Made by a program: the position numbers and the translations under genes
The notes under the pieces: model-generated
What the model was told of the DNA's origin: nothing
The model's input: only the letters and a program-made list of their open reading frames with translations
Database searches by the model: none
Assembly: GCA_039028635.1 (NCBI GenBank)
Contig: JBCCHV010000024.1
Coordinates: 1 to 64,000 of the forward strand
Reading direction: 5' to 3'
DNA length: 64,000 nt
Source: Acidobacteriota bacterium
Lineage (GTDB): Bacteria > Acidobacteriota > Thermoanaerobaculia > Multivoradales > JBCCEF01
Shown: piece after piece, positions 30,408 to 44,205 of the stretch
Position numbering within the stretch: the first letter of the stretch is position 1
How the letters are laid out: each line of letters opens with the position of its first letter

Positions 30408-30949
30408 CGGGCAGCTCCCTCGGGCAGGCGAGTCTCCGCCAGGGCTTGCTCCTCGACTCGGATACGGGTTCGCAGGAGGAACAGGTTGGCGAGGCTCCAG
30501 CCGAGGGCCGTCAGCCAGGCGCCGTGGATCAGCGGCAGGGCGGCGATCTCGATCACCACCGCCAGGTAGTTGGGATGGCGCAGGTAGCGGAACGGGCCGC
30601 CCGCGACCAGCGGTTCGCCGGGCACCACCAGGACGCGGGTCGTCCAGCGTTCGCCGAGGGTGCGCACGGTCCAGTAGCGCAGGCCCATGGCGGCGGCGAC
30701 GGCCAGACCCGCGACGAGGGCGAGAGTCGGCCGAAAAGGCCGATCGAGGAGCCAGACCTCGAGGGGGCCGGCGGCCAGGAAGGAGCTGTGGAGGGCCACC
30801 ATCCAGGGGTAGTGGGACTGTCCGACCTCGAAGCCGCCGCGAGCCCGCAGGGCGCTTTCGTGGCGACGCGACAGGCGCAGCTCGAAAAGCCTCTCGAGAG
30901 CGACCGCGAGGACCACCAAGGTGAACCAGCCTCGGCTGTCGATCACCAC
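30404..30949 (-). CDS. Isoprenylcysteine carboxyl methyltransferase-like membrane methyltransferase
   Basis: A 181-residue membrane protein with four or five helices. The C-terminal signature VPGEPLVAGGPFRYLRHPNY then LAVVIEIAALPLIHGAW is the ICMT/PEMT motif that binds S-adenosylmethionine. Homologues paired with type III polyketide synthases (BpsB beside BpsA in Bacillus) O-methylate alkylpyrones, and the same job is likely here. GTG-like start at 30949 overlaps the end of the PKS gene by 7 bases. Confidence 0.85.
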   Translation of the reverse strand: MVIDSRGWFTLVVLAVALERLFELRLSRRHESALRARGGFEVGQSHYPWMVALHSSFLAAGPLEVWLLDRPFRPTLALVAGLAVAAAMGLRYWTVRTLGERWTTRVLVVPGEPLVAGGPFRYLRHPNYLAVVIEIAALPLIHGAWLTALGWSLANLFLLRTRIRVEEQALAETRLPEGAAR

Positions 30950-32007
30950 CGCAGCAACACCAGCTCGGAGCAGAACCCCGGTCCCATGGCCAACAGCACG
31001 CCATAACTGCCGGCCGCTGGCCGGTGGTTGGCGAGAGTCTCCTCGAGCACCAAGAGCACCGAGGTGGAGGACAGATTGCCGACTTCCCGCAGGCTGCGCC
31101 AGGTGACGGCGAGATCCTCTTCATCGAGATCGAGGCCGGCCTGAATGGCGGCCAGAACCTTCGGTCCGCCGGGATGACAAACCCAGGACTGGATGTCGCT
31201 TCGGCGCAAGCCGTGATCGGCGAGAAAGCGATCGACGTCGTCGGCGAGGTGCTCGCGGGCGAGTTGCGGCACCTGTGGCGACAGAACGATGGCGAAGCCG
31301 CGCTCCGAGATGTCCCAGCCCATCGCCCGTTCCGTGTCGCGGTAGAACACCGAGCGGGTGGCGACGATCTCCGGGCCCTCGCTACCGTTCGAGGTCGGTC
31401 CACGGTCGGCGCCTCGCACGACCACGGCGGCGGCGCCGTCTCCGAACAACCCCGAGGCGATGAGGTTGGGAATCGACAGATCTTCCCGTTGCAGGGTGAG
31501 CGAGCAGAGCTCGACCGAGAGCAGCACCGCCACCTGCTCGGGATAGGCCTTCACGTAATCGGCGGCGCGGGCGATGCCGGCGGCGCCGGCGACGCAGCCG
31601 AGGCCGAAGATGGGGATCCTCCGGAGGTTCGTCGGTAGACCGAGACGATTGACCAGCCGGGCGTCGAGGGAAGGCGTGGCGATACCGGTGACGGACACGG
31701 TGATCAAGGCTCCGACATCCGACACCGTCAGTCCGGCCCGCTCCAGGGCTTGACGAATGGCGCCTTCGCCGACCTCCTGGGCGACTCGAATCCAGGCATC
31801 GTTGGCCTGCCCCCAGCGCTCAAGCTTGGAGTACTCGTCAATCGGCAGGGCGAGGTGCCTGCCTCCGACCAGGACATTGCGGTGGAGCTGCTCGAGTCGG
31901 CCGAGATTGAAGTGGCGCTGGGCCCAATGCTCGCGCAGCGCCGCGATCAGGGTCTCTTGATCGTAGTAGTGGGGCGGCAGGGCCTTGCCGACGGCGGCGA
32001 TCCTCAT
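30943..32007 (-). CDS. Type III polyketide synthase (alkylpyrone/alkylresorcinol-type)
   Basis: A 354-residue thiolase-fold enzyme with the catalytic triad visible: Cys138 in IFGLGCVAGAAG, His278 in WVCHPGGPKVLA, Asn311 in EVGNLSSTSVLLV. GFGD-like loop is SGLFGDGAAAVVV. It condenses an acyl starter with malonyl-CoA units to form pyrones or resorcinols. ATG 32007 has a GAGG box upstream. First gene of the leftward operon PKS-methyltransferase-ACP-FAAL-FAD oxidoreductase, all with short overlaps. Linkage to FAAL and ACP suggests a long-chain acyl starter delivered on a carrier instead of CoA. Confidence 0.93.
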   Translation of the reverse strand: MRIAAVGKALPPHYYDQETLIAALREHWAQRHFNLGRLEQLHRNVLVGGRHLALPIDEYSKLERWGQANDAWIRVAQEVGEGAIRQALERAGLTVSDVGALITVSVTGIATPSLDARLVNRLGLPTNLRRIPIFGLGCVAGAAGIARAADYVKAYPEQVAVLLSVELCSLTLQREDLSIPNLIASGLFGDGAAAVVVRGADRGPTSNGSEGPEIVATRSVFYRDTERAMGWDISERGFAIVLSPQVPQLAREHLADDVDRFLADHGLRRSDIQSWVCHPGGPKVLAAIQAGLDLDEEDLAVTWRSLREVGNLSSTSVLLVLEETLANHRPAAGSYGVLLAMGPGFCSELVLLRW

Positions 32008-32103
32008 TGCGGATCCTCGGAGTAGGGCACGGGCCGATCTTAGCCCGACCTTCTTGCCGCCGCTTCACGGTGTCGGGATCTTTCGCCGCGGCAAGCTCCC
32101 CCC

Positions 32104-32140
32104 AATAAAAAAGCGGGCCGGCCCCGAGTGTAGGCCGGCC
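32104..32140 (-). terminator. Intrinsic terminator downstream of the caspase-like gene
   Basis: Minus strand: an 8-base GGCCGGCC arm (32140-32133), 9-base loop, matching arm (32123-32116), then CGC and six T (32112-32107). It would end transcription of the 32.3-38.8 kb locus before the PKS operon begins at 32007. Confidence 0.85.
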
Positions 32141-32311
32141 ACGGAGGAACTTGCGTAACCCCGGTGGCGACAACGCCGGCGCGGAGCGCTCATCCGAACG
32201 CGACGTCATCGCTGGCACCGTAGTGGTGCTCCCGACGCCGCGTCCTGATCTAACCTGGACGGTGACGTCAGAAGTTCCTACTGAGTGTTGATGCCATCTC
32301 CCGCGAAATGT

Positions 32312-33544
32312 TCAGACCCTTGGCGAAAATAGTCTGGCCGCCGGATCTCCGAGGATGATGAAGCGGCGAGCATCGGCGGTGGCGGTCCACAATCCGACCA
32401 GGCGATCCTGGTCGACCGGCAGGCCGCGCTCGCGTTCTTCGAGCAGCAAAAGGAGCTCGCTGGCGAGCTCGCCGTGGCGACGCGCGAAGGCGGCCATCGC
32501 CTGGCCGATGGTGGCGCCGGCCAAGAGCTCGTCGAGGAGGAGCTCGAAGACGCCCCGCTGGCTGCCGGCGCCGGGCCAAAGGAACGACCAGCCCCAGGTT
32601 CGCTCGACGTGCCCGACGACGGCGAGGGAGCCGAGCTCCAGAAAGCGCCGCGGCAGAGCCGCCACGAAGGGGCGCGACGCCAGCGGCGGAGAGTCGCCGC
32701 CGGCGAGATGGTCGAAGCCGTCGCGGCAAGGGGTGCCGGCGCTGTAGCAGCCGAAGTGGAAGACCATCCGAGGAGCGTCCTCGGGGACGTCCTCGGCGGC
32801 GAAGATCTGCTCGTCCGGCACCTCACCTCGAGCCCGTCGCGGTCCGGGCCAGTCCTGGCACAGAAGGGCCCCCTGGCGTTGCCGTTGGCGCGGATCGTCG
32901 GCACTCAACCGCAGGCCGTGACCTGCCAGAAAGAGCAGCTCCGGCCGGTTCTCGAGGGCGCGGAGGAGGCGCTCCTTGGTCGCCGTTTCGGCGATCAGGA
33001 GCTCGAAGGTGTCGTCGAGGAGCGATTGCGCCAGCGGGTTCACCAATAGATCGACAATCCGTTCGGTGACACCGTCTTCCGGGTTGCGCGGCGCCACCAG
33101 CAGGCCATGGGGGCAGCTCGTCGAACCTTCGGTCTCCGCTGCGATCACCCTCTGGCCGTAGCGGTGATAGCTCTCGGGATCGTCGAAATCGAGTCGTCCC
33201 ACGCGGTGCTGCAAGGCGAGCTGGAACTGGAAGTCGAAGGCGATGGCCTCGGCGTTTCCCACCAGCAGGAGGTTCGCCGGCATGCGATCCGGTTGCGGCG
33301 GGCCCGGCGCGACGCCGTGGCGGGCGAGGAAGTCGAGCTTGGTTTCACCCGCTCGATAGCCGTCGCCGCCGCGCAGCTCGCGGTAGCGGTCGGCGCCGGC
33401 TTGCTGGCGACGATGCTCGAGCAGCGGACGGAGGGCTTCGGCCACTGCGGGATCGCCGCCCTGGGCGAAGATGACGCCCCAGCCGTCTCGAGCCAGGTTC
33501 GGCGGTGAGGGAAGCGTTGTCCGGGGCATCGAGGGCGCGAGCAT
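32312..33544 (-). CDS. Caspase-like (clan CD) cysteine peptidase
   Basis: A 410-residue protein without signal peptide. The clan CD dyad is visible: His209 in PELLFLAGHGLRLSAD and Cys266 in MVFHFGCYSAGTPCRDGFDH, each after a hydrophobic strand as in CHAT, gingipain and caspase proteases. Residues ~1-200 are an N-terminal domain (MPANLLLVGNAEAIAFDFQF, RLDFDDPESYHRYGQRV), and 290-410 include PRRFLELGSLAVVGHVERTW, which resembles the region after the Cys in CHAT proteases. Substrate unknown. It follows a 55-residue peptide gene, with hairpins between, and ends the sigma factor/CHAT locus ahead of a terminator. Confidence 0.75.
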   Translation of the reverse strand: MLAPSMPRTTLPSPPNLARDGWGVIFAQGGDPAVAEALRPLLEHRRQQAGADRYRELRGGDGYRAGETKLDFLARHGVAPGPPQPDRMPANLLLVGNAEAIAFDFQFQLALQHRVGRLDFDDPESYHRYGQRVIAAETEGSTSCPHGLLVAPRNPEDGVTERIVDLLVNPLAQSLLDDTFELLIAETATKERLLRALENRPELLFLAGHGLRLSADDPRQRQRQGALLCQDWPGPRRARGEVPDEQIFAAEDVPEDAPRMVFHFGCYSAGTPCRDGFDHLAGGDSPPLASRPFVAALPRRFLELGSLAVVGHVERTWGWSFLWPGAGSQRGVFELLLDELLAGATIGQAMAAFARRHGELASELLLLLEERERGLPVDQDRLVGLWTATADARRFIILGDPAARLFSPRV

Positions 33545-33586
33545 CGGCAGAGCTCGGGAGGAGAAGAAGTCGGGAGGGGGAAAGGG

Positions 33587-33654
33587 CTTCGCCCCCTGAT
33601 GAAAGGGGGCGAAGCGGGACTCCGATCCTCGAGGAGCGAGCTCGAGGACCGGAG
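33587..33654 (-). promoter_or_regulatory. Tandem hairpins between peptide and caspase-like genes
   Basis: Between the peptide stop (33667) and the protease start (33544) lie two stem-loops: an imperfect stem around 33620-33654 (TCCTCGAG/CTCGAGGA core) and a perfect 10-base stem, CTTCGCCCCC (33587-33596) with GGGGGCGAAG (33605-33614). There is no clear T-run, so they may act as RNA processing or partial-termination elements setting the peptide:protease ratio. Confidence 0.45.
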
Positions 33655-33666
33655 CTCGGGTCGGCT

Positions 33667-33834
33667 TTACGGGTTGCCGCCGCCGCCGCTGCCGTTGTTA
33701 CCGGACGGGTCGGTCGACCCGGACGAGCCGCTGTCGGCCTGGCCGATCGGGAAATGGGGTCCCTTCCAGCTCGCCTCGCGGTCGTCGAAACCAATGTCGG
33801 GCATTCCGCTGTCACTGGTCTGGCTAAAGGTCAT
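33667..33834 (-). CDS. 55-residue Gly/Ser-rich peptide next to caspase-like protease
   Basis: ATG 33834 is preceded by AGAGGTAGAG. The product begins MTFSQTSDSGMPDIGFDDRE, has ASWKGPHFPIG in the middle and ends in a Ser/Gly/Asn-rich tail (PSGNNGSGGGGNP). It is acidic and hydrophilic, with no signal peptide or membrane helix. No family recognised. It has its own AT-rich upstream region and precedes the caspase-like protease gene by 122 bases. It could be a substrate, inhibitor or released peptide effector of that protease; this is inference from linkage. Coding is supported by a good ribosome binding site and codon-position GC bias. Confidence 0.55.
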   Translation of the reverse strand: MTFSQTSDSGMPDIGFDDREASWKGPHFPIGQADSGSSGSTDPSGNNGSGGGGNP

Positions 33835-33916
33835 GGTCTCTACCTCTTGGGTTTTTGTTTCCTACTCGTTGGGCCTCACCCATATAGACCAGGGAAGAGG
33901 GAAATCTCGTTAGCCC

Positions 33917-33976
33917 AAGCGGCAAAAAAGTTTCAATTTGTAATAAATTAAAATCTAATAATCTTAAAAATTGGAT
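33917..33976 (-). promoter_or_regulatory. AT-rich putative promoter of the peptide-protease unit
   Basis: About 55 bases with hardly any G or C, unlike the surroundings. On the minus strand it includes TTGAAA (about 33936-33931) ahead of a T-tract and runs like TTTTAATTTATTA that resemble an UP element. It lies 85-140 bases before the peptide ATG, suggesting separate transcription of peptide and protease. No convincing -10 can be paired. Confidence 0.4.
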
Positions 33977-34033
33977 CAGACAGCGAGCCGCGCCCTTCTT
34001 CTGGGTAGCGGTTCTAGAAACGCCTGCCGAGAT

Positions 34034-37000
34034 TCAGTCGAGCCGGCCCTGCTGAACGAACCCGGCCCAGTAGAAGGGCGCGTTGAATCTGTCACTCTCG
34101 AGAAGGCCGAGCTGGGCGTCGCGAAGCGCTGCGCTGGCGGAGAGGTCATGATCCCAGTAGGCTTTGTGGAGGTCCTCCATGAGGACACTGGTAGCGGCGT
34201 CATCGACGGCCCAGAGGCTCACGACCAAACGGGCAGTACCGGCCTGGAAGAAGGCCTGGGTCATCCCGAGGAATCCTTCGACTGCTGTCTCCTCGCCGAG
34301 TGCGGTCTCACAGCCACTGAGAACCACTAGGTCGGCTCGGAGGTCGAGCTGGCGAATGTCGCGGTCGGTCAAGAATCCATTGACCTCTCGTCCACCTTCG
34401 TCAAAGCGCGAGAGCCACAGTCCGTGGCGCTGCGGATCGCGATGAAGCACGGCATGGGTCGAGAACTGGATGACTCCGAAGTTGGCGAGCAGACCTTCGA
34501 GAATTCTCTGGCGGTTTGCCTCGAAGCGGAAGAAGGTTTTGGATTCCTCGACGAGTTCGGCGATGTTCTCGCCCTCGAGCCGAGCGTAGCGGAGGCGCGG
34601 GAATTTGCTCGCAATGGGATCGTGCGCGCCTTCGTTGCTCTCGAAGAGTCGACTGTCCAAAACAGGGTCGCCGACAACCGCTAGGGATGGGGTCTTGGAA
34701 CGGCGTTTCGATTGGCTTTGCAACTGGTACCAGGACGGCGCTGATGGGAAAGTCGTCAGTTGGAAGTTGTGAATCAACGAGCCTGGCGAGTTCTCTGTTG
34801 TCCACGGGAGTGCAGCCCAGGGAACGTAGTGGGAGACCCCGTCGGGAATGATCAGCCATCGCTCGACATTGGCGAGCCAGTCTCCTTCCCGTTCAACGAG
34901 GTCGGCCAGGAGAGTCTTCGAGAGCTCGTCGAGAGCCGGTGTCGAGGCGGTGCCAGGTTTGCGGTACTGCTTCTCCTGAATCTCTTCATAGGCCTTCTTG
35001 ATGACGGTACTGAGCTGCTGCCTGGGCGGTAGCTCGAAGCTCTCGAAGCGGTCGCGGGTGAGAGCCCAGAGAAAGCTACGTTCTGTTCCAAGGGCGAGGG
35101 TGACGACAAGTGTCTTTTCGCTCGGTAACGCGTCTCGAACCTGCGCCAGACTGACTCGCTGATCACGCAGCTTCTCGATCAGCGCCTCGTCGCTAGGAGT
35201 CAAGAGCCTCTGCTGAGCCCTCCGTAGCTCCGACTCGACGAGCTCAAGACGTGCCTGGAGTTCTTCGAGAGTGGATTCGCCGGCTTCGGAACCAGGAGAC
35301 CGGCTCCACAAACCCTCGGTGATTCTTCGATCAATGTCCGAGCGCTTGCTTTCCAGCTCCTCGAGCTCTCTCCGCTGATTGACCGTCAGAAATTTACGGC
35401 CATCGTCCGAGCCCATCAGCAGGCTTTCCAGCATGGTCAGACCGCGAGCTCGACCGTGAAGAGCGAATGCCTGCTCTTGATGCCCTTCCTCGGGGCTCAG
35501 GCGTTCGAGCTCCATTCGGGTATCGATCGCGAGCTCGAAGGCTGACAGGCTTCGGCGATGGAGCTGCTGGCGTGCTTCGAGATCCAGGCCGAGGAGGCGA
35601 AGCTCGCCATATTCATCGACGGCCTTATCGGCAATCTCTGCGGCCTTCTCGGGATCTCGATAGCGGACCGAGCGCGCAAGGCCCTCATAGGCCTCGGCGA
35701 GCCCCCGCTGCAAGGCGGACGATTCGAGAACTTCGATCGCTTGGCTGAACAGCTCTTCTGCGGAGGTCGAATCTTGATCGCGCAACTCCAGATGGCCGAG
35801 CTTGTTAAGGACGAGGGCGAGATTGCCTTTGTCTCCGAGCTGATCGGACAAGCTTCTTGCCTCTTCGAGTCTTGATCTCCCTTCCTCGATCCGTCCAGCA
35901 GCGATGGCGAGTTGGCCGAGATCTTGGAGAGTCGTTGCTTCACCTCGACGATCTTTGGATTGTTGCCGCTTCTCGAGGGCTCGGCCAAAGAGGGCTGCGG
36001 CTTTCTGTAGCTCCCCACGGGCTGCTTCGAATTGCGCTAGGCGATTGAGGAGTGTTCCCTGGAGGGCCGCCGAGGGTTCTTCAGCGAGCGCCTGCTCGAA
36101 GCGCTGGATCCCACCCCGAGTGTCGCCTCGAAGCGCGAGGTTGTCGCCCAGATTGTTGAGGACTTTGGCGATGTCTTCCGATCGACGGTCTTGGAGCCCT
36201 TCGAAGGCAGTGAGGGCAGCGAGGAACTGATCTCCGGCTTCGCGCAGGGCGCCGATCGCATTGAGAACGATGCCGAGGTTGTTGTTGGTGATGGCCTCTC
36301 CCAACTCGTCTTCGGCGAGGCGACGGCGAGGAAGATTCGCGCGGTGTATCTCCTCGGCCTCACGGAAGCGGCCGATCATGCGTAGAACTTCACCGCGCTG
36401 GTTCTCAGCCGTCGCTTGTGCCCAGAGAGACCCGATGGTGCCAAAGAGCTCGGCGGCCTGGGAAAAGTATGAAACTGCCTGTGAGCTTGCCCCTTGGTAC
36501 CAGGCGCACTCACCGAGGTAGCGGCGGGAGTAGGCTTCGCGTTGGAGCGTCGCTCGGACTACGGAAAGAGGTGTGCCGGGATTGAAAGCCGATCCGAAGA
36601 CTTGACTCACAGCTGGCGCAGAAGCCAAGAGTCGGTCGTCGGCAGTGCCAGTAAGCTGCGACAGCAGATCAGGCGACAAGGTTCCGTCGTTGCGGCGAGC
36701 GCCGATCTTCTCGAGCTCCTCGACGGTCGAACCGAAGTCGCCGCAAGCTTCTCGCAGGTTATTCGCCTGCCGGAGTTTCTCCGCTGCTGTAAGGTGGCGT
36801 TCGGCTCGCTCAAGGGTCTGGTCTGCGAACGTTGCCGTTCTCGGAGTCGACCACCGGTGTCGATAGTGGCCTCCTGGTTCGCTGGCGAAGGCGTGGAGGC
36901 GGACTCTGTACTCGCCCGATTCCATGGCTACGAAGTGAACCATTTCAAGCCCGCGGTCGTGCTGCGGAAGAAAGGAATCGACCGCTGGTAGCTCCCCTGA

Positions 37001-37168
37001 CTTCGGAGTGACAGGGATCAACTCGACATCAACTCCATGCTGCTCTACCTCGAGGCGAGCTGTTTCGCCGGCCGCTAGATAGATCGACGTCTCAAAGGTC
37101 TCGTCGCCGGCGAGAAAGGGCAGGCCTGGACCGCAGGCGACGGCGAAAAGCACCGGCACCAGTAGCAA
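34034..37168 (-). CDS. Lipoprotein TPR-CHAT protease with PPC-like N-terminal domain
   Basis: A 1044-residue protein. LLVPVLFAVAC is a lipobox signal (Cys12), although the only usual start, TTG 37168, leaves no positive charges; the frame is open upstream to include ELSCVLYLL but without ATG/GTG. Residues ~20-115 resemble a PPC beta-sandwich (SIYLAAGETARLEVEQHG, ESGEYRVRLHAF). Residues ~115-590 are TPR repeats (for example ENQRGEVLRMIGRFREAEEI, NNLGDNLALRGDTRGGIQRF, QDLGQLAIAAGRIEEGRSRL), followed by a coiled coil (~620-690) and a CHAT caspase-like domain (~700-1044) with His905 in IQFSTHAVLHRD and Cys953 in LVVLSGCETALGEE. Both catalytic residues are present. It is preceded by an anti-sigma-like protein and an ECF sigma factor in the same operon. 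Confidence 0.88.
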   Translation of the reverse strand: MLLVPVLFAVACGPGLPFLAGDETFETSIYLAAGETARLEVEQHGVDVELIPVTPKSGELPAVDSFLPQHDRGLEMVHFVAMESGEYRVRLHAFASEPGGHYRHRWSTPRTATFADQTLERAERHLTAAEKLRQANNLREACGDFGSTVEELEKIGARRNDGTLSPDLLSQLTGTADDRLLASAPAVSQVFGSAFNPGTPLSVVRATLQREAYSRRYLGECAWYQGASSQAVSYFSQAAELFGTIGSLWAQATAENQRGEVLRMIGRFREAEEIHRANLPRRRLAEDELGEAITNNNLGIVLNAIGALREAGDQFLAALTAFEGLQDRRSEDIAKVLNNLGDNLALRGDTRGGIQRFEQALAEEPSAALQGTLLNRLAQFEAARGELQKAAALFGRALEKRQQSKDRRGEATTLQDLGQLAIAAGRIEEGRSRLEEARSLSDQLGDKGNLALVLNKLGHLELRDQDSTSAEELFSQAIEVLESSALQRGLAEAYEGLARSVRYRDPEKAAEIADKAVDEYGELRLLGLDLEARQQLHRRSLSAFELAIDTRMELERLSPEEGHQEQAFALHGRARGLTMLESLLMGSDDGRKFLTVNQRRELEELESKRSDIDRRITEGLWSRSPGSEAGESTLEELQARLELVESELRRAQQRLLTPSDEALIEKLRDQRVSLAQVRDALPSEKTLVVTLALGTERSFLWALTRDRFESFELPPRQQLSTVIKKAYEEIQEKQYRKPGTASTPALDELSKTLLADLVEREGDWLANVERWLIIPDGVSHYVPWAALPWTTENSPGSLIHNFQLTTFPSAPSWYQLQSQSKRRSKTPSLAVVGDPVLDSRLFESNEGAHDPIASKFPRLRYARLEGENIAELVEESKTFFRFEANRQRILEGLLANFGVIQFSTHAVLHRDPQRHGLWLSRFDEGGREVNGFLTDRDIRQLDLRADLVVLSGCETALGEETAVEGFLGMTQAFFQAGTARLVVSLWAVDDAATSVLMEDLHKAYWDHDLSASAALRDAQLGLLESDRFNAPFYWAGFVQQGRLD

Positions 37169-37251
37169 GAGGTAGAGAACGCAACTCAGCTCTACGGTTT
37201 GCCGGATTTCTCTCCCTTGTCGGAAGAGACGAGGAGCAGAATGGTTCGAAT

Positions 37252-38040
37252 CTATGGTTCGGGGCAGATCTCGAAGTCCTGGAAGTCGCGGTTCGAACCG
37301 TCTTGGGCGGTCACTTGGACAGCGTAGCTGGCGGGCGCTAAGTCCGTTGGTGGCAGCGTGACGAAGAACTCGCTATGACCATCCCATGCGATCGAACCTT
37401 GCGCAAGAATCTGGTCCCGAGCATCGAGCACTTGAATCTCGAGGGTCTGGGCGCCGCTGCCCGCGATTCGGTTCGGCTGGACCCCCACAGCTCCGACGGC
37501 AGCAGAACTGTGCTGTAAGCAGGTGATCTCGTTCTCAGGGCCACGAAGCCGGTCGGTTGGCTCGGAGACTGCTCCGACCGAAGGTCTATCAGCAGACACT
37601 CTCACTTGAGCGACCTCCGCCGGCTGCGGTCGGGAGAGCAAAGTCACCAGGGTGACCAGAGCGATGCAGGCGGCGAGGCCGGCGTAGAGCCACTTGGTGG
37701 ATCCGTGGGCCGCCGCGGCGGCGGCCGCGGGTGCTGGTTGGACGGAGTCGGCGGCAGCTTCGCCTCTGTTGGCGGACGCCCTTTGGGGAGGACCGAGGAC
37801 GCGAGAACGGATTCTCGCCAGTGCCGCGGCTTCTTCCGGCGAAGGCGGTGCGGTGATCTCTGCGAGCAGCTCGCGACAGCTCTCGCACCTTTCGAGGTGG
37901 GCGGCGATCCGAAGCTCATCGAGGCGCGACAGGTCGCCCTCGGAGAAGCAATGGAGATCCGCTTCGCTCACGTGCCGGCGAATTTGATGCTCTCTCAGCT
38001 CTTCGAGAATCTGGTCGAGCTCTTGGTCTTTCTCTTCCAT
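37252..38040 (-). CDS. Zinc-finger anti-sigma-like transmembrane protein
   Basis: ATG 38040 gives 262 residues (a GTG at 38055 is an alternative). Cytosolic residues 1-60 carry the ZAS-type zinc motif His48-x3-Cys52-x2-Cys55 in RIAAHLERCESCRELLAEIT. An Ala/Pro-rich linker leads to one transmembrane helix (WLYAGLAACIALVTLVTLLS, 117-136). The exported part (~140-262) is beta-rich (QTLEIQVLDARDQILAQGSI, LAPASYAVQVTAQDG). This is the topology of an anti-sigma factor: zinc domain for the sigma factor inside, sensor outside. It lies between the ECF sigma gene (27 bases upstream) and the TPR-CHAT gene (83 bases downstream). Confidence 0.8.
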   Translation of the reverse strand: MEEKDQELDQILEELREHQIRRHVSEADLHCFSEGDLSRLDELRIAAHLERCESCRELLAEITAPPSPEEAAALARIRSRVLGPPQRASANRGEAAADSVQPAPAAAAAAAHGSTKWLYAGLAACIALVTLVTLLSRPQPAEVAQVRVSADRPSVGAVSEPTDRLRGPENEITCLQHSSAAVGAVGVQPNRIAGSGAQTLEIQVLDARDQILAQGSIAWDGHSEFFVTLPPTDLAPASYAVQVTAQDGSNRDFQDFEICPEP

Positions 38041-38067
38041 GGCGGCACCTGTCACAAGTCCTGGGCT

Positions 38068-38793
38068 TCAGTCCGTGTCCTGGTCCGTTGGCTCCGATTC
38101 CGCGGCATCGAGACAACGGCGCAGTCGCTGTCGGCCGGTCGAGAGATGGCTCTTGACCGCGTCGCGGGAGATGCCGAGGGCCTTGGCGATCTCGCTGTAG
38201 CTCTGCCCCCAGCTACGGAGCAGCACCACTTCCCGCTGCCTTCTGGAGAGCTGATCGAGACAGCGCTCTACCTGTTCGATCTTCTCGCGACTTTGCAGCG
38301 CCCTTTCGGGGTCTTCGTGGGGATCTTCGACCCCTTCCGCTTCGTCGAAGACGAGATCCAAGGAGACCTCGTCGTGCCTACGTTTGAGGGTGTTCCCGGA
38401 TCGCAGAAACTCTTTGAGCTTGTTGGCCGCGATCGAGTAGACCCAGGTCGTGAAGCTGGATCGACCCTCGAATGTGTCCCTACTTCTTATGATGCTGTTT
38501 AGCGTGAGTTGGGTGAGGTCTTCAGTATCTTCAAAGGTTCCGCGTTTGCCGAGATTGCGCCGGAAGTACCGCAAAAGCAGCGGGGCGTAGACCTCGAAGA
38601 GCTCTTCGTCGGTGGCGGGAGGGTCGATCACGGCAGCGGTCGATGGCGGGTCAGTTCTCGGTTGCCCGATCAGGGATCGAAGTCCCGTGGTTGGTGCGAG
38701 TTGCTTCTGGAGCCGGGGTGCCCCGACGGAATGCATGGCGACCCTGCTGCGGGACGCCCGATGCAGGGCGGAGTATAACTCCGCTCGAAACAT
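38068..38793 (-). CDS. ECF-type RNA polymerase sigma factor
   Basis: Up to 241 residues; region 2 is at ~68-135 (YAPLLLRYFRRNLGKRGTFE, DLTQLTLNSIIRSRDTFEGR, SSFTTWVYSIAANKLKEFLR) and region 4 at ~178-228 (LDQLSRRQREVVLLRSWGQS, YSEIAKALGISRDAVKSHLS). Regions 1.1 and 3 are absent, so it is an ECF sigma. The true start may be ATG 38736 (MHSVGAPRLQ), because the sequence just before 38793 is AT-rich and lacks a ribosome binding site. First gene of the operon with the zinc-finger membrane protein and the TPR-CHAT protease. Confidence 0.9.
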   Translation of the reverse strand: MFRAELYSALHRASRSRVAMHSVGAPRLQKQLAPTTGLRSLIGQPRTDPPSTAAVIDPPATDEELFEVYAPLLLRYFRRNLGKRGTFEDTEDLTQLTLNSIIRSRDTFEGRSSFTTWVYSIAANKLKEFLRSGNTLKRRHDEVSLDLVFDEAEGVEDPHEDPERALQSREKIEQVERCLDQLSRRQREVVLLRSWGQSYSEIAKALGISRDAVKSHLSTGRQRLRRCLDAAESEPTDQDTD

Positions 38794-38818
38794 TCAAATA
38801 GCTAAATGAGGGCCTGCC

Positions 38819-39226
38819 TCAAGGCTGGTCGGAACGTTTGCGCAATCCCGATGCCCAGGCCGCGGCCGCGAGCAAGAGGCCCGCGATGGTGTAGAGCAAC
38901 AGGCTGCGCTGGGCCAGAGGCCAGAGGAGCGGGCGCGGTGGAGCGCCGGCGGCGGCCGCAGCCAGCACGGCCACCGGACCGCGAAAGAGCCATCCGATCC
39001 ATCCGGCGTAGAGGCCGGTGAGGAGCAGGTTGCCGCCGCGCTCGGCGAGCAGCGCGAAGAGGGCGGTGAGGGCGATCGCCTCGAGAACCCAGGCACCGAC
39101 CACGGTGGTGGCTGGAACTTGGGCCGTCGGGTTTTCCACCACGCTCTGGAAAAAGGCGATGGCCAGAATCAGCAGCGGCAGGGCCCAAAGATAGAAGCGT
39201 CGCAATGTGGAGGCATGATAACTCAC
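38819..39226 (-). CDS. Small multispanning membrane protein, unknown
   Basis: A 135-residue protein with four hydrophobic helices: FYLWALPLLILAIAFFQSVV, TVVGAWVLEAIALTALFALL, GWLFRGPVAVLAAAAAG and LLLYTIAGLLLAAAAWASGL, ending in a basic, polar tail. No family recognised. It is in the same direction as and 25 bases ahead of the sigma factor gene but has normal high GC, so it probably belongs to the older backbone. Divergent from the DUF2064 gene. Confidence 0.55.
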   Translation of the reverse strand: MSYHASTLRRFYLWALPLLILAIAFFQSVVENPTAQVPATTVVGAWVLEAIALTALFALLAERGGNLLLTGLYAGWIGWLFRGPVAVLAAAAAGAPPRPLLWPLAQRSLLLYTIAGLLLAAAAWASGLRKRSDQP

Positions 39227-39311
39227 TGAGGCGCGGTATATTGGCTCGTGTCCGATGCCCTCCGGTCACCGGTAATCCGTTCAGCGGCTGGCGGCGTATG
39301 GACCATTGAAC

Positions 39312-40076
39312 ATGCACTCGCGCCGCTCCCAGCCCACGCTTCTCGTCTTCACCCTCGGCGCCGATCGCGAGGTCGATCGACGGCCTCTCCTGCCGGCGCC
39401 GTTGCGCGCCCGCGAGGTCGAGCTGCGGCGGGCCTGGCTGGCGGCGACCCTCGACATCGGGCGCCAGTTGGGCTGTTGTCTGGAGGTTTCGACACCGGCG
39501 CCGCTCGCCCTCGGCGGTGACGTTCGCCATCGGTCGCAGGTCGGTCACGACTTCGGCAGTCGCTTTGCGGCGGCTTTCGCTGCCGCCCTCGAGACCAGCT
39601 CGGGACCGGTGGTCGCCGTCGGTGCCGACTCGCCGGCATTCGGGGCCGGCCATCTGCGGCGGGCCCTGGCCTTGCTGGCCTCCCGTCCGGACCGGGTGGT
39701 GCTGGGGCCGAGCCGCGATGGTGGTGTCTACTTGATCGCCACCGCCACCCCCGTTCCCGGTCTTGCGGAAGAGGTTCGCTGGTGTCGCCGCGACACCTCG
39801 CGAAGTCTGCGCCAGGCCCTCGAGGCCCTCGGCCGCGAGGTGGTCGAGCTCGATCCGCTGCACGACGTCGACGGTCCGGCGGACCTTCAGCGCTGGCTCG
39901 GATCGCGCCACTTCGTCGCCGACCTCGCGCCTCTGGCGGTCACTCTGCGCCGCCTGCTGGCCCGGTGGATTCGCCCTGCTTGTCCGCGTCGTCTCGGCAG
40001 ACCGCTGCAAGCCCCGGTCGCTTTCTCACTGGCCCGCGCCCCGCCGATCCCGGCGTCCGCCTCCGCCACGATCTGA
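39312..40076 (+). CDS. DUF2064 (TIGR04282-type) nucleotidyl/glycosyltransferase-like protein
   Basis: ATG 39312 gives 254 residues (TTG 39306 also possible). The core fits DUF2064 glycosyltransferases: HDFGSRFAAAFAAALE, VVAVGADSPAFGAGHLRRAL (containing the GxDSP acidic motif) and DRVVLGPSRDGGVYLIATAT, followed by DTSRSLRQALEALGREVVEL and LDPLHDVDGPADLQRW. These are characteristic of rSAM/selenodomain-associated transferase 1 proteins. The first ~40 residues usually hold PxxxxxKTRL-type substrates motifs that are degenerate here. DUF2064 genes are often near arsenosugar radical SAM genes, which agrees with the radical SAM and ArsM-like genes downstream. Confidence 0.75.
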   Translation: MHSRRSQPTLLVFTLGADREVDRRPLLPAPLRAREVELRRAWLAATLDIGRQLGCCLEVSTPAPLALGGDVRHRSQVGHDFGSRFAAAFAAALETSSGPVVAVGADSPAFGAGHLRRALALLASRPDRVVLGPSRDGGVYLIATATPVPGLAEEVRWCRRDTSRSLRQALEALGREVVELDPLHDVDGPADLQRWLGSRHFVADLAPLAVTLRRLLARWIRPACPRRLGRPLQAPVAFSLARAPPIPASASATI

Positions 40077-40167: not shown

Positions 40168-41058
40168 ATGACCGAGTCTGCTTATCCACAAGACGGCCTG
40201 CCGGCGCCGGAAGTCCACCTGACGGCGCTCGACACGCTTTGGTTCCAAGTTTCCGGCACGGTCTGCAACCTGGCCTGTAGTCACTGCTTCATCTCTTGCT
40301 CGCCGACCAACAAGACCCACCAGATGATGTCCCTCGAGAAGGTGCAGGGCTACCTCGACGAGGCGGCGCTGCTGGGGGTCAAGGAGTTCTACTTCACCGG
40401 CGGCGAGCCGTTCCTGAACCCGCAGATGGAGGCCATCCTGGAAGCCGCCCTGGCGGTGGGGCCGGCCAGCGTGCTGACCAACGGCCTGCTCCTCGACGAG
40501 GGCCGCTGCCAGCGGCTGAAGGGCCTACAGGACGGCTCCGAATACTCCCTCGACGTGCGCGTTTCCCTCGATGGCTACGACGCCGCGACCAACGACGCGA
40601 TTCGCGGCGTGGGCACCTTCGATCGCGTTCTCGCGGCGGTGCGCCGGCTGCTCGACGTCGGCCTCAATCCGGTCCTGACGGTCACCGAGGTCTACGGCGA
40701 CTCGGGCACCGAGGCGGGCAAGGCGCGCTTTTTCGAGCTGCTGCGCGGGTTGGGAGCCGACAAGCCTCGCCTCAAGGTGCTGCCGGTGTTTCAGATCGGC
40801 TCCGAAGCGGAGCGCGGCGGCGCCTACGAGAGCTGGCAGAAGCTGCGCGGCATCGACGCCCCGGACGGAAGTTGGGAGCACCTGCAGTGCAGCGCCTGTC
40901 GCATGGTGACGGACCACGGCGTGTGGGTCTGCCCGATTCTGGTGAACGAGCCTGAGGGCAAGATGGGGGAACGCTTGGCGGATACCCTCGACACTTTCCC
41001 CCTCGAGCACCCGGCGTGCTGGACCTGCCACGTTTTCGGCGTCAGCTGCCGGACCTGA
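40168..41058 (+). CDS. Radical SAM enzyme with SPASM-like C-terminal cysteines
   Basis: A 296-residue protein. The iron-sulfur motif is Cys33-x3-Cys37-x2-Cys40 in VCNLACSHCFISC, followed by EFYFTGGEPFLNPQMEAILE (the GGEP motif binding SAM), VLTNGLLLDEG and DVRVSLDGYDAATNDAIRG. The C-terminus has further cysteines (LQCSACRMVTDHGVWVCP and PACWTCHVFGVSC) that could ligate an auxiliary cluster. The substrate is unknown. Seventeen bases before a metallophosphoesterase-like gene and close to an ArsM-type methyltransferase, so a role in making an organic arsenic or related metabolite is suspected. Confidence 0.85.
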   Translation: MTESAYPQDGLPAPEVHLTALDTLWFQVSGTVCNLACSHCFISCSPTNKTHQMMSLEKVQGYLDEAALLGVKEFYFTGGEPFLNPQMEAILEAALAVGPASVLTNGLLLDEGRCQRLKGLQDGSEYSLDVRVSLDGYDAATNDAIRGVGTFDRVLAAVRRLLDVGLNPVLTVTEVYGDSGTEAGKARFFELLRGLGADKPRLKVLPVFQIGSEAERGGAYESWQKLRGIDAPDGSWEHLQCSACRMVTDHGVWVCPILVNEPEGKMGERLADTLDTFPLEHPACWTCHVFGVSCRT

Positions 41059-41074
41059 GGACGAGGCCGAGACG

Positions 41075-42088
41075 ATGGCGAATCGCATTCCCGAAGACCA
41101 GGAACGGCGCCGGCAGCGCGCCGCCGAGCGCGCCAAGCTGACCCGTCACCGGGGCCTGGCGACCTGGGGCGAGAAGCTGGTGCCCCTCGGCGAGTTTCGC
41201 GATGCCGTCGAGCAAGCCGGTCACCGCCTGTCGCCGGAACAGCGCCAAGAAGCGGTGCACGGTTATCGCGCCGCTCAGCCGACGGCGATTTCGGTCGAAG
41301 GGCCGTGGAGCCGAATCGCCGTCTTCGGCGGCGTCTACAACAATCATCAGGCCCTGGCGGCGGTCCTCGAGGAGGCCACCCGGCGCGGTGCCGAAGCGAT
41401 CTACTGCCTGGGCGATCTGGGCGGCTTCGGGCCGAGCCCGGAAAAGGTCTGGCCGCTGCTCGAGCAAGGTGCCGTGCGCACCATCCAGGGCAATTACGAA
41501 GAGTCTCTGGCCAGTGGCCGCGAGGACTGCAACTGCGGCTACACGGATCCGCGCGACAACCACTTTGCGCGCATTTCCTACGGCTACACGGACCAGAACT
41601 GCTCGGCCGAGTTCAAGGCCTGGATGGGTGAGCTGCCGCTCCAGCGGCGGGTTCGGGTCGGCTGCCGCGAGCTGCTGCTGGTGCACGGCTCGCCGCGGCG
41701 CATCAACGAGTTCCTGTTCGCCTCGTCGGCGCCGGCAGCGTTTCTCGAAGTCCTGCTCGACCAGAACGCCTGCGACGGTTTGCTCTGCACCCACACCGGC
41801 CTGCACTGGCATCGCCGGCTGCCGTCGGGCCGCGATGCGATCAATGTCGGCGTGATCGGTCGACCCGCCAACGATGGCGATTCGCGAGTCTGGTTCGCCA
41901 TGCTGGAGGAGCGCTCCGGCGACCTCGAGGTCGAGCTGGTGCCGCTCGTCTACGACCACCAGGCCCTGGCGCAGGAGATGCGCCGCGAAGAGCTGCCGGA
42001 GGAGTTCGTCGAGACCATCCTGACGGGATGGTGGACGACCTGCCTGGAGATTCTGCCGCCGCGGGAGCGGGCGTCCTCGAAACACTGA
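41075..42088 (+). CDS. Metallophosphoesterase-like protein with altered first motif
   Basis: A 337-residue protein. Residues ~80-290 follow the calcineurin-like phosphodiesterase pattern: AVFGGVYNNHQALAAVL, YCLGDLGGFGPSPEKVWPLL (GDxxGxGP), TIQGNYEESLASG (GNYE), LLLVHGSPRRINEFLF and LLCTHTGLHWHRRLP. However, the first motif is GGVYNNH where active enzymes have GDxHxN, so one metal-site Asp and the His are replaced by Gly and Tyr. The N-terminal ~75 residues are basic and helical and unlike the family. It may be catalytically modified. Co-transcribed with the radical SAM gene upstream (16-base gap). Confidence 0.75.
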   Translation: MANRIPEDQERRRQRAAERAKLTRHRGLATWGEKLVPLGEFRDAVEQAGHRLSPEQRQEAVHGYRAAQPTAISVEGPWSRIAVFGGVYNNHQALAAVLEEATRRGAEAIYCLGDLGGFGPSPEKVWPLLEQGAVRTIQGNYEESLASGREDCNCGYTDPRDNHFARISYGYTDQNCSAEFKAWMGELPLQRRVRVGCRELLLVHGSPRRINEFLFASSAPAAFLEVLLDQNACDGLLCTHTGLHWHRRLPSGRDAINVGVIGRPANDGDSRVWFAMLEERSGDLEVELVPLVYDHQALAQEMRREELPEEFVETILTGWWTTCLEILPPRERASSKH

Positions 42089-42133
42089 CCCAAGTCTCAA
42101 CATCTACCGAAGAGATCCGCGGAGGGATTTCCC

Positions 42134-43363
42134 ATGACTATCGAACCAACCGTCGAAAACGCTCTCGACCACGGGGCCGTGGACGCCAGCTCACCGGACC
42201 CCACGGCGTCGGCCGGCCAAGCCGAGGCGGCGGTGCGCCAACGCTATGCCGCTGGGGCTCAGGCCCAGGAAGCGTCCCTCTGCTGTCCGATCGACTACGA
42301 CCCGCGCTACCTCGAGGTGATTCCCCAGGAAGTGCTCGAGCGCGACTACGGCTGCGGCGATCCGAGTCGCTACCTGGCCGCCGGTGAGACGGTGCTCGAT
42401 CTCGGCAGCGGCACCGGCAAGATCTGTTTCATCGCCTCGCAGGTGGTCGGTCCCGAGGGCCGCGTGATCGGAGTCGATATGACCCCCGAAATGCTTTCCG
42501 TGGCGCGGCAGGCGGCGCCGGTGGTGGCGGAACGGCTGGGGTACGGCAATGTCGACTTCCGACGCGGCCGGATTCAAGACCTCGGCCTCGATCTCGACCG
42601 CCTCGATCGCGAGCTCGCGGCTCGGCCGGTGAGCGATGCGGCCCATCTGTTGGCGGCCCAGGAGACCCTCGACCGGCTGCGTCAGGAAGAGCCGATGGTG
42701 GCCAGCGACTCGGTGGATGTGGTGGTCTCGAACTGTGTTCTCAACCTGGTCGCCGGCGCCGACAAACGGCAGCTCTTCGGCGAAATCTACCGGGTGCTGC
42801 GCAATGGCGGCCGAGCGGTGATCTCGGACATCGTGAGCGACGAGCCGGTGCCCGAGTCGTTGCAGAGGGATCCCGAGCTGTGGAGCGGCTGCATCTCCGG
42901 TGCCCTCACCGAGAGTGGCTTCCTCGAGGCCTTTCAGGAGGCCGGGTTCCATGGTGTCCGCATCCTCGAGCGGCAGGTCGAGGCCTGGCAAACGGTGCAG
43001 GGCATCGAGTTCCGCTCTTTGACCCTGGAGGCTTTCAAGGGCAAGGAAGGCCCTTGCTGGGAGCGCAACCAGGCGGTGATCTACAAGGGCCCCTTCCTCG
43101 AGGTGACCGACGACGATGGCCATCGCATGGTGCGCGGCGAGCGCTACGCGGTGTGCGAGAAGACCTATCGCCTTTACCAGCGCGAGCCCTATCGCGGCAT
43201 GTTCGAGGCCATCGAGCCGCGCCTCGAGATTCCCCTCGAAGCGGCGGAGCCCTTCGATTGCAGCCGCACCGTGCACCGGCACCCGCGCGAGACCAAAGGC
43301 ATGGATTACGACGCCACCATCGAGGCCGCGGGCGGCTGCGAGCCCGGTGGAGACTGCTGCTGA
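42134..43363 (+). CDS. arsM: ArsM-type arsenite methyltransferase
   Basis: A 409-residue SAM-dependent methyltransferase; GGAGGG box before ATG. The SAM site is VLDLGSGTGKICFIASQVVG (~88-107). Three cysteine sites typical of As(III) methyltransferases are kept: Cys50-Cys51 in QEASLCCPIDYD, Cys201 in DVVVSNCVLNLV and Cys253 in ELWSGCISGALTE. A ~35-residue insertion (about 153-190) precedes the VVVSNC strand, and the C-terminus ends GGCEPGGDCC, an extra Cys cluster. The family methylates trivalent arsenic; the enzyme may be in detoxification or in synthesis of organoarsenicals. Neither arsC, arsB nor arsR is next to it. Confidence 0.82.
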   Translation: MTIEPTVENALDHGAVDASSPDPTASAGQAEAAVRQRYAAGAQAQEASLCCPIDYDPRYLEVIPQEVLERDYGCGDPSRYLAAGETVLDLGSGTGKICFIASQVVGPEGRVIGVDMTPEMLSVARQAAPVVAERLGYGNVDFRRGRIQDLGLDLDRLDRELAARPVSDAAHLLAAQETLDRLRQEEPMVASDSVDVVVSNCVLNLVAGADKRQLFGEIYRVLRNGGRAVISDIVSDEPVPESLQRDPELWSGCISGALTESGFLEAFQEAGFHGVRILERQVEAWQTVQGIEFRSLTLEAFKGKEGPCWERNQAVIYKGPFLEVTDDDGHRMVRGERYAVCEKTYRLYQREPYRGMFEAIEPRLEIPLEAAEPFDCSRTVHRHPRETKGMDYDATIEAAGGCEPGGDCC

Positions 43364-43365
43364 GC

Positions 43366-44205
43366 ATGCTGCGACGCGGATTCCTTCTCATCGTCGGCAT
43401 TGCCCTGTTGGCGCTGCCGGCGAGCGCCCTGCGGATCAACGGCTCGACCACCGTCAACCCGGTGGTGGTGCGGGCCGCCGAGATCCTGCAGGCGGAACAG
43501 GGCCTGAAGATCTTGGTCGACACTCAGGGTGGCAGCTCCGGCGGCATCGCCGCCCTCGGCGATGGACGGGTCGAGATCGGCATGTCGTCGCGGCCGCTGT
43601 CGGCGAAGGACCGTGAGCGCTTTCCCGGCACCCGCTTTCAGCCCGTGCCGATCGGCTACGACGCTGTCGCTCTGGCGGTGTCGCGCGATGTTTGGGAAGG
43701 CGGCCTTCGCACCCTGACGCGGCAGCAGGTGCGCGGTCTCTATGAGGGCACGATCCGCAACTGGCGCGAGATCGGCGGCCCCGATCGCCGGGTGGCTTTC
43801 TTCAACAAGGAGCCCGGTCGCGGCACCTGGGAGGTCTTCGCCGACTGGCTCTACGGCGATGCCGATCGGGCACCCTTGGTCAGCCTGCCGGAGGTGGGCT
43901 CGAACGAGGAGGGGCGCAACAAGGTGCGCTCGACCCGCGGCGCGATCACCCAGATCTCCGTCGCCTGGACCGATCAGCGGTCCCTCTTCGCCGTTCCCCT
44001 GATCGCCGACGACGGCACCGCCGTGGAGCCCAGCCGCGATCATCTGGAGGCCGGTTCCTACCCCTTGTCGCGGCCGCTCCTGGTGATCACCAACGGCGAT
44101 CCGCGGGGCGAGGCGCGCCTGATGGTCGACTTCCTGCTCAGCCCCCGAGGTCAAGGGCTGGTCGAGGAGAGCGGCTATCTCAGTCTGGGTGACCTCGCTC
44201 GCTGA
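43366..44205 (+). CDS. pstS: PstS-like periplasmic oxyanion-binding protein
   Basis: ATG 43366 follows arsM by two bases; 279 residues, with a signal peptide (FLLIVGIALLALPASA). The mature start LRINGSTTVNPVVVRAAEIL is the PstS phosphate-binding loop, and VDTQGGSSGGIAALGDGRVE, IGMSSRPLSAKDRERFPG, GYDAVALAVSRDVW and FFNKEPGRGTWEVFADWLYG fit type II periplasmic phosphate receptors. Residues differ enough from housekeeping PstS that arsenate or another oxyanion cannot be excluded. The stop overlaps pstC (TGATG). Confidence 0.85.
   Translation: MLRRGFLLIVGIALLALPASALRINGSTTVNPVVVRAAEILQAEQGLKILVDTQGGSSGGIAALGDGRVEIGMSSRPLSAKDRERFPGTRFQPVPIGYDAVALAVSRDVWEGGLRTLTRQQVRGLYEGTIRNWREIGGPDRRVAFFNKEPGRGTWEVFADWLYGDADRAPLVSLPEVGSNEEGRNKVRSTRGAITQISVAWTDQRSLFAVPLIADDGTAVEPSRDHLEAGSYPLSRPLLVITNGDPRGEARLMVDFLLSPRGQGLVEESGYLSLGDLAR

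What the first reader, a model, noticed from the sequence alone, without database searches (positions are those of the whole stretch)
34034..38793. ECF sigma factor, zinc-finger membrane anti-sigma and TPR-CHAT lipoprotein protease in one operon
Seen: order sigma, anti-sigma-like protein (H-x3-C-x2-C, one helix, exported domain), then a lipoprotein with PPC, TPR, and CHAT domain with His905 and Cys953. Established: in type III-E CRISPR systems a TPR-CHAT protease cleaves a protein (Csx30) that holds an ECF sigma factor. Inference: a CRISPR-independent analogue in which the outside-facing protease trims the anti-sigma protein and frees the sigma factor. No Cas genes were seen here.
Basis: partly seen in the sequence, partly recalled or inferred. 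Interest (0 to 1): 0.8.

Follow-up and report, generated by a model that had tools for sequence, protein, structure and literature searches.

The report
Sigma factor operon with two caspase-like proteases
In an uncultured acidobacterium, a stress-type gene switch (sigma factor plus membrane brake) sits in one operon with a secreted caspase-like protease, a tiny disordered protein and a second, gingipain-like protease; the arrangement recurs many times in this phylum and looks like a split version of a known myxobacterial anti-phage switch, but cutting of the brake by the protease is still untested.

Summary
It is not chance: 13 of 19 strong TPR-CHAT genes in this genome have an ECF sigma neighbour (p about 6e-10), and 58 of 90 sampled in the order do. 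The same five-gene cassette occurs again in this genome. The CHAT protein is not Csx29. The closest known system is the M. xanthus anti-sigma DdvA, whose solved structure shares the TPR and caspase-like fold with it (Z 20.9); its partner sigma DdvS runs an anti-phage island. So the cassette looks like a split DdvA/DdvS. Cleavage of the anti-sigma is plausible but unproven: in the sister species the same site keeps sigma and anti-sigma without TPR-CHAT, so the protease may instead be an output. New variant of a known kind.

The parts
38068..38793 (-). ECF (group IV) sigma factor, 241 aa, sigma2 and sigma4 only; the first ~55 residues may be an over-long start
37252..38040 (-). anti-sigma factor, 262 aa: H-x3-C-x2-C zinc-finger domain (ChrR/RsiW-like), one TM helix, ~120-aa outside Ig/CopC-like beta domain
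34034..37168 (-). exported (lipoprotein-like) TPR-CHAT protease, 1044 aa: N-terminal PPC-like beta domain, TPR solenoid, CHAT domain with His905/Cys953; start codon uncertain
33835..34033 (-). AT-rich intergenic stretch (44.7% G+C against 61-70% around) in front of the small ORF; possible internal promoter (inference)
33667..33834 (-). small disordered Gly/Ser-rich protein, 55 aa, with Shine-Dalgarno; equivalents lie between TPR-CHAT and the second protease in relatives
32312..33544 (-). second clan CD cysteine protease, 410 aa, gingipain/separase/CHAT-like, His209 invariant and Cys266 in at least 90% of relatives; no signal peptide seen

Best explanation
A self-contained envelope-signalling cassette, best read as a split relative of the M. 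xanthus DdvA/DdvS switch. Resting state: the zinc-finger half of the anti-sigma holds the sigma factor inside the cell while its Ig-like half lies outside (families established; holding of this sigma inferred). The exported TPR-CHAT protein sits on the same outer side; its TPR/beta domains sense a signal or binding partner (inferred). When triggered, its His905/Cys953 centre cuts, or its binding re-arranges, the anti-sigma ectodomain; general site-2 and Clp proteolysis then frees sigma (inferred by analogy with RseA, Csx30 and CalpT). Freed sigma switches on the operon, including the small disordered protein and the second, gingipain-like protease (operon order shown; regulation inferred). In relatives the cassette runs on into CHAT-SIR2, nSTAND1-WD40 or C14 caspase genes, so the output is probably a conflict or cell-death type response. 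My odds: functional coupling of TPR-CHAT to the anti-sigma about 0.6; direct proteolysis of the anti-sigma about 0.4.
For: Own genome: 14 of 25 CHAT domains lie within 6 kb of one of 51 sigma-r2 sites (p 6e-9); for the 19 strong TPR-CHATs p is 1e-8 to 6e-10. Order: 58 of 90 TPR-CHATs have a sigma within 2 kb; 50 of the 58 also have a TM anti-sigma, with 111-235 outside residues. Outside the order, 7 of 20 loci in the phylum still have a sigma nearby. Catalytic His/Cys invariant in 37/37 sigma-linked proteins. Nine of 11 ectodomains of this anti-sigma family in the genome lie beside a CHAT gene (p 6.5e-11; the profile was trained on linked cases). In loci without a recognisable sigma the same ectodomain still precedes TPR-CHAT. 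Solved anti-sigma DdvA aligns with P0001 over 614 residues, TPR to the end of CHAT (Z 20.9). Distance matrices: sigma with cytoplasmic half r 0.69, ectodomain with CHAT r 0.45-0.47, crosses 0.21-0.33.
Against: In sister species G001 the syntenic site holds orthologous sigma and anti-sigma (same ectodomain) but no TPR-CHAT. Two further own-genome loci with this ectodomain lack CHAT; one is followed by a patatin-domain protein. The co-divergence signal follows chromosomal proximity in the ten operons with the reverse order. No anti-sigma/TPR-CHAT fusion was found in Acidobacteriota. Whether DdvA's caspase-like domain is catalytic could not be learned (papers not held). No shared promoter motif was found.
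Confidence: 0.45

Rival explanations
1. TPR-CHAT is an output, not an input: the sigma factor is released by another signal and simply drives expression of an exported protease/effector cargo (TPR-CHAT, small protein, second protease), which acts on other targets.
For: The sigma/anti-sigma pair persists at the syntenic site without TPR-CHAT, with other membrane and exported-looking genes in its place; a related sigma/anti-sigma pair is followed by a patatin-domain protein; cargo genes around the module vary a great deal.
Against: The ectodomain family is strongly tied to TPR-CHAT (9 of 11); it stays beside TPR-CHAT when no sigma is recognisable; DdvA carries the TPR/caspase-like fold inside the anti-sigma itself.
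Confidence: 0.33
2. TPR-CHAT is a non-proteolytic receptor: it binds the anti-sigma ectodomain and changes its state by conformation, as the outside part of a split DdvA, while its protease activity serves autoprocessing or other substrates such as the second protease.
For: DdvA keeps TPR and a caspase-like domain in the anti-sigma chain; in the partial correlations the TPR region co-diverges with the ectodomain more (0.28) than the catalytic domain does (0.14).
Against: His905 and Cys953 are invariant in 37/37 sigma-linked proteins, which a pure receptor would not need.
Confidence: 0.15
3. Neighbours without functional link: a chance cluster of frequent gene families.
For: CHAT and sigma genes are both numerous in this genome.
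Against: Linkage probability 6e-9 or lower and recurrence in relatives and across the phylum.
Confidence: 0.03

Closest known systems
DdvS/DdvA of Myxococcus xanthus (ECF sigma and transmembrane anti-sigma, PDB 8rot, 8rw5)
   Same: ECF sigma plus transmembrane anti-sigma; the DdvA structure shares TPR and caspase-like fold with P0001 (Z 20.9, 614 residues) and with P0004 (Z 14.8, 256 residues). DdvS controls an anti-phage island (PMC12288465); the signal that inactivates DdvA was unknown in PMC4374960.
   Different: Here anti-sigma and TPR-CHAT are separate genes, the anti-sigma has its own Ig-like ectodomain, and a small protein and a second protease follow. No CBASS or Cas genes recognised at the locus. 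DdvA is not found by the CHAT sequence profile.
Craspase Csx29 / Csx30 / CASP-sigma (type III-E CRISPR)
   Same: TPR-CHAT protease, sigma inhibitor and ECF sigma in one system (PMC10028731); best structural match of P0001 (8eey_B Z 29.3).
   Different: Csx29 is cytoplasmic and RNA-guided; P0001 is exported and scores 10 bits against 300 with the Csx29 model. No Cas7-11 or Csx30 recognised at the locus; the anti-sigma here is a membrane zinc-finger protein.
CalpL/CalpT/CalpS (type III CRISPR)
   Same: Protease cuts an anti-sigma factor that holds an ECF sigma (PMC11417357).
   Different: CalpL is a SAVED-Lon protease activated by cA4; no CHAT, no membrane zinc-finger anti-sigma.
ECF54 group
   Same: CHAT-domain, carboxypeptidase and subtilase genes reported in its conserved neighbourhood; proteolytic control proposed (PMC8999054).
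   Different: Described as lacking an anti-sigma factor; here there is one. Group assignment not tested.
EACC2 caspase systems with ECF sigma (PMC8195603)
   Same: Caspase-family protease genetically coupled to an ECF sigma and a TPR protein in conflict-type loci.
   Different: Caspase fused to EACC2 and a DUF1822 TPR protein; no zinc-finger membrane anti-sigma described.
Gingipains (peptidase C25) and separase
   Same: Fold of P0004 (RgpB Z 25.7, 304 residues; separase Z about 17); 15 of 28 family members match Pfam C25.
   Different: About 14% identity, no signal or pro-peptide seen; sits beside TPR-CHAT, sometimes fused to it.

Membership tests
ECF (group IV) sigma factors | sigma2 and sigma4 regions, no sigma3 | tested here: met
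   Sigma70_r2 at 65-132, r4_2 at 173-224, nothing between; TIGR02937 8e-29
Zinc-binding anti-sigma factors (ChrR/RsiW type) | H-x3-C-x2-C anti-sigma domain | tested here: met
   Motif present; TIGR02451 1.3e-5 and zf-HC2 0.0044 sub-threshold; weak alignment with solved ChrR
Zinc-binding anti-sigma factors (ChrR/RsiW type) | binds and inhibits its cognate sigma | not testable with these tools
   Only co-divergence with sigma (r 0.69) and adjacency
CHAT (clan CD) proteases | CHAT domain with His/Cys dyad | tested here: met
   PF12770 1.4e-51; His905 and Cys953 invariant in 37
CHAT (clan CD) proteases | peptidase activity on a substrate | not testable with these tools
   needs an assay
Csx29 (type III-E TPR-CHAT) | reaches the curated Csx29 model NF041237 | tested here: not met
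   10.1 bits, cut-off 300; no locus in the genome reaches it
Csx29 (type III-E TPR-CHAT) | encoded with Cas7-11 and Csx30 | tested here: inconclusive
   None recognised among the genes read next to the locus; the genome's only cas1 lies on another contig. Cas7-11 itself was not searched for.
DdvA-type anti-sigma | anti-sigma domain, TM helix and TPR/caspase-like domain in one chain | tested here: not met
   Split over two genes, P0002 and P0001; fold of the outside part shared
DdvA-type anti-sigma | controls an anti-phage island | not tested
   Sigma targets unknown; some relatives have nSTAND1-WD40 and CHAT-SIR2 genes downstream
Regulated intramembrane proteolysis (RseA/RsiW type) | site-1 cut in the ectodomain followed by a site-2 cut | not testable with these tools
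   Topology fits; no cleavage data
Peptidase C25 (gingipain) | C25 fold with catalytic His/Cys | tested here: met
   P0004 model pLDDT 90.9; RgpB Z 25.7; His209 invariant, Cys266 in at least 90%
Peptidase C25 (gingipain) | passes the Pfam C25 cut-off | tested here: not met
   12.9 bits for P0004 itself, cut-off 23
ECF54 | assignment by the published ECF group models | not tested
   models not available here

The most novel reading that the evidence does not exclude
A two-protease relay across the membrane: the secreted TPR-CHAT protease cuts the anti-sigma ectodomain, freed sigma induces the cassette, and the second, gingipain/separase-like protease processes the small disordered protein encoded between them, giving a CRISPR-independent, caspase-family envelope alarm that Acidobacteriota have multiplied into many insulated paralogues and coupled to conflict genes.
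Probability: 0.22. Interest if true: 0.85.

Novelty: new variant of a known kind. Interest (0 to 1): 0.62.

Why it matters
Site-1 proteases of anti-sigma factors are usually general housekeeping proteases encoded elsewhere (general knowledge). Here a dedicated caspase-family protease is co-encoded with many copies of a widespread sigma/anti-sigma module, and a solved anti-sigma (DdvA) carries the same folds in one chain. That makes the open question of what inactivates DdvA-type anti-sigmas testable in a simple reconstituted system, and offers many natural protease/substrate pairs. It also marks an unnamed clan CD protease family next to nSTAND and SIR2 conflict genes in several phyla.

Tried and rejected
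Fusion of anti-sigma with TPR-CHAT in relatives: over-long frames (1200-1400 aa) were 5' artefacts, not fusions. Cyclophane/FxSxx RiPP reading (HaaT and FxSxx TPR models): only the TPR region matches, 83 bits against 1125 and 37 against 300; dropped. PADLOC: only generic TPR and CARF/HTH partial hits. Rfam and tRNA scans of the window: nothing. Shared promoter motif between the sigma upstream region and the small-ORF upstream region: none; sigma-70 and terminator scans are near chance. Sigma identity of the ~400-aa protein upstream of the fused loci: 5 bits, not supported. Co-divergence as proof of contact: set aside, because the ten reverse-order operons follow gene proximity. Sequence search for DdvA's CHAT domain with profile A5: not among matches up to E 10. 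The search for related loci with the 28-sequence alignment failed; a 7-sequence alignment worked.
Full report
OBSERVATION. The sigma factor has regions 2 and 4 only. The anti-sigma has the H-x3-C-x2-C motif, one TM helix and an outside domain; its cytoplasmic part aligns weakly with solved ChrR and RsiW. The CHAT domain of P0001 is strong (1.4e-51). His905 and Cys953 are invariant in 37 sigma-linked relatives. AlphaFold gives a six-strand domain at 23-106, a long TPR solenoid and the CHAT fold (pLDDT 84.5, pTM 0.82). Pfam PPC does not hit P0001 but hits 2 of 37 relatives, so 'PPC-like' is fair. The lipobox-like LFAVAC is there, but the frame has no ATG, GTG or TTG upstream of the TTG at 37168, so the true start is open.

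Two more genes follow on the same strand. One is a 55-aa ORF (33667-33834). The other, P0004 (32312-33544), is barely seen by Pfam (CHAT 2.9e-4, under cut-off). Its 28-member family has His209 invariant and Cys266 in at least 90%, 15 of 28 members match peptidase C25, and its model (pLDDT 90.9) matches gingipains (Z 25.7, 304 residues), separase and Csx29. It is a second clan CD protease by fold and dyad; activity is untested.

THE CASSETTE RECURS. Contig C76 of the same genome (L034) has the same series: ECF sigma, zinc-finger anti-sigma, TPR-CHAT, an 86-aa small protein, and a P0004 relative at 44% identity. In relatives, P0004 homologues lie directly downstream of TPR-CHAT in most loci. Between them there is usually a small hydrophilic ORF, acidic or Gly/Pro-rich, of very different sequence from locus to locus. 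All nine that I checked, the window's included, have a Shine-Dalgarno-like sequence before the ATG. In five loci TPR-CHAT and the P0004 domain are one polypeptide joined by a Gly/Asp/Pro-rich linker, with an export-signal-like N-terminus.

LINKAGE STATISTICS. The genome (6.28 Mb, 117 contigs) has 25 CHAT domains and 51 sigma-r2 sites. 14 of 25 CHAT domains lie within 6 kb of a sigma site, expected 2.3, p 6e-9. Taking the 19 strong TPR-CHATs, 12 or 13 have a sigma neighbour depending on the detection used: p 1e-8 to 6e-10. In 90 TPR-CHATs sampled, mostly in the order, 58 have a sigma within 2 kb: 41 upstream in the same direction, 13 downstream in the same direction, 4 opposed; 50 also have a TM anti-sigma. 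Outside the order, 7 of 20 Acidobacteriota loci show a sigma nearby. These counts depend on my own ORF calling and profiles, and the loci were chosen because they score well with P0001 or P0004.

TAXONOMY.

ECTODOMAIN. The outside domains of 44 anti-sigmas align as one Ig-like family, with a weak match to CopC in the PDB (0.0036). Scanned over the genome, the profile finds 11 anti-sigma ectodomains, 9 beside a CHAT gene (p 6.5e-11). Caution: the profile was built from linked cases and includes several of these. Where TPR-CHAT is fused to P0004 no sigma is recognised upstream, yet in three of the five loci a TM protein with this ectodomain is still there (E 2e-10 in two; 1e-4 to 5e-4 in a small search for the third), next to or fused with an unnamed ~400-aa protein. 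So the ectodomain tends to stay with TPR-CHAT even when the cytoplasmic partner changes.

CO-DIVERGENCE. Among 44 operons, sigma correlates with the cytoplasmic half of the anti-sigma (r 0.69) and the ectodomain with CHAT (r 0.45); cross pairs give 0.21-0.32. With TPR, catalytic and PPC-like parts separated, the ectodomain goes with the TPR (0.54) and catalytic (0.47) regions. This is the pattern expected of contacts on each side of the membrane. It is not decisive: in the ten operons with TPR-CHAT upstream of sigma, CHAT follows sigma (0.84) more than ectodomain (0.50), as expected if neighbours on the DNA simply travel together.

COUNTER-EVIDENCE FROM SYNTENY. The cassette lies between a FabH-like gene (30943-32007) and a membrane-protein/DUF2064-like pair (38819-40076). 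In G005 and G008 the same flanking genes lie next to each other, with only 0.5-0.7 kb between the FabH-like and DUF2064-like genes, filled by the small membrane-protein gene; the site is empty. In G001, of the same genus, the site holds an orthologous sigma (37%) and anti-sigma (25%, same ectodomain, E 4e-12), but a 241-aa membrane protein and a 348-aa exported-looking protein instead of TPR-CHAT and P0004. So the sigma/anti-sigma pair can exist without TPR-CHAT. Two other own-genome pairs also lack it, one followed by a patatin-domain protein. This keeps the output reading alive.

STRUCTURAL PRECEDENT. Among PDB chains, P0001 matches Csx29 (Z 29.3), separases, and the transmembrane anti-sigma DdvA (8rot_A, Z 20.9, 614 residues, rmsd 6.0, P0001 198-1041 against DdvA 368-991). 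P0004 alone matches DdvA 693-991 (Z 14.8, 256 residues). DdvA is thus an anti-sigma whose outside part has the TPR and caspase-like folds: a natural joining of what are two genes here. [quoted passage not shown] the signal that inactivates DdvA was unknown (PMC4374960). The DdvA papers themselves were not available, so I do not know whether its caspase-like domain is active.

WIDER CONTEXT OF P0004. 277 related stretches were found in GTDB genomes; the 80 listed are from Chloroflexota, Nostoc and other cyanobacteria, Acidobacteriota, Planctomycetota, Myxococcota and others. There it often sits with CHAT genes and long TM proteins; two such neighbourhoods were scanned and gave CHAT-SIR2 and nSTAND1-WD40. 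In relative G029 (L078) the series is sigma, anti-sigma-like, TPR-CHAT, small ORF, P0004 relative, CHAT-SIR2, nSTAND1-WD40. In others a C14 caspase follows. These partners are typical of conflict systems; that is inference by association.

MECHANISM AND VERDICT. Shown here: gene content, order, recurrence, conserved catalytic residues, shared fold with DdvA and Csx29. Inferred: holding of sigma by P0002, same-side contact of P0001 and P0002, cleavage, induction of the operon, action of P0004 on the small protein. I favour coupling of TPR-CHAT to the anti-sigma (about 0.6) and give direct cleavage about 0.4. The TPR-CHAT is not Csx29; it may work like a site-1 protease, which is not proven. One point stays unexplained: P0004 itself has no export signal, while its fused relatives appear exported. 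New variant of a known kind.

PRIOR ART FOUND. CHAT genes next to ECF54 (PMC8999054), ECF sigma in EACC2 caspase systems (PMC8195603), Craspase (PMC10028731), CalpL/T/S (PMC11417357), DdvS/DdvA (PMC12288465, PMC4374960). No held paper combining 'CHAT domain' and 'anti-sigma factor' other than the Craspase paper was found; most subscription papers are not in that library.

Noticed in passing
window 32312-33544; A1 family in 277 GTDB stretches: Unnamed clan CD protease family with a conserved N-terminal N-G-[IV]-D-G-x-[ST]-G-x-Y-L-x-P motif (absent from P0004 itself), in Chloroflexota, cyanobacteria and Acidobacteriota, in some loci beside CHAT-SIR2 and nSTAND1-WD40 genes.
   Followed up: partly
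L090, L094, L095, L100, L102: Natural fusions of TPR-CHAT with the second protease. In some the upstream partner is an unnamed ~400-aa protein plus a TM protein with the anti-sigma ectodomain; in L102 these two are one chain.
   Followed up: partly
L068 and L074: Small protein before the second protease is built of repeats of about DDGDPTSSDPKAGGFxGxGxHK, unlike its equivalents elsewhere.
   Followed up: no
L033, L197, L210, L214, L217: TPR-CHATs without the second protease are often followed by a 100-260 aa soluble protein of no Pfam family with a Gly/acidic tail; possible substrates or effectors.
   Followed up: no
window 32007-39318 against L283-L286: Syntenic site is empty in G005 and G008 and carries a different sigma/anti-sigma cassette in G001; sigma to TPR-CHAT genes are 61-64% G+C against 69-70% in the flanks.
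   Followed up: partly
G000 C6:87803-88039 and C56:27978-28229: The anti-sigma ectodomain profile weakly hits a stretch within the open frames of two TPR-CHATs, near their N-terminal PPC-like domain (E 2.6e-4, 0.003): the two outside domains may be related.
   Followed up: no
window 40168-46757: Radical-SAM protein, phosphoesterase-like and methyltransferase genes (ArsS/ArsM-like by reading only) followed by a PstSCAB-type phosphate transport set; not part of the cassette.
   Followed up: no
G000 C33:1515-2387: The genome carries one cas1, far from this locus.
   Followed up: no
window 34034-37168: No ATG/GTG/TTG start gives P0001 a normal signal-peptide n-region; possible rare start codon or assembly error.
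   Followed up: no
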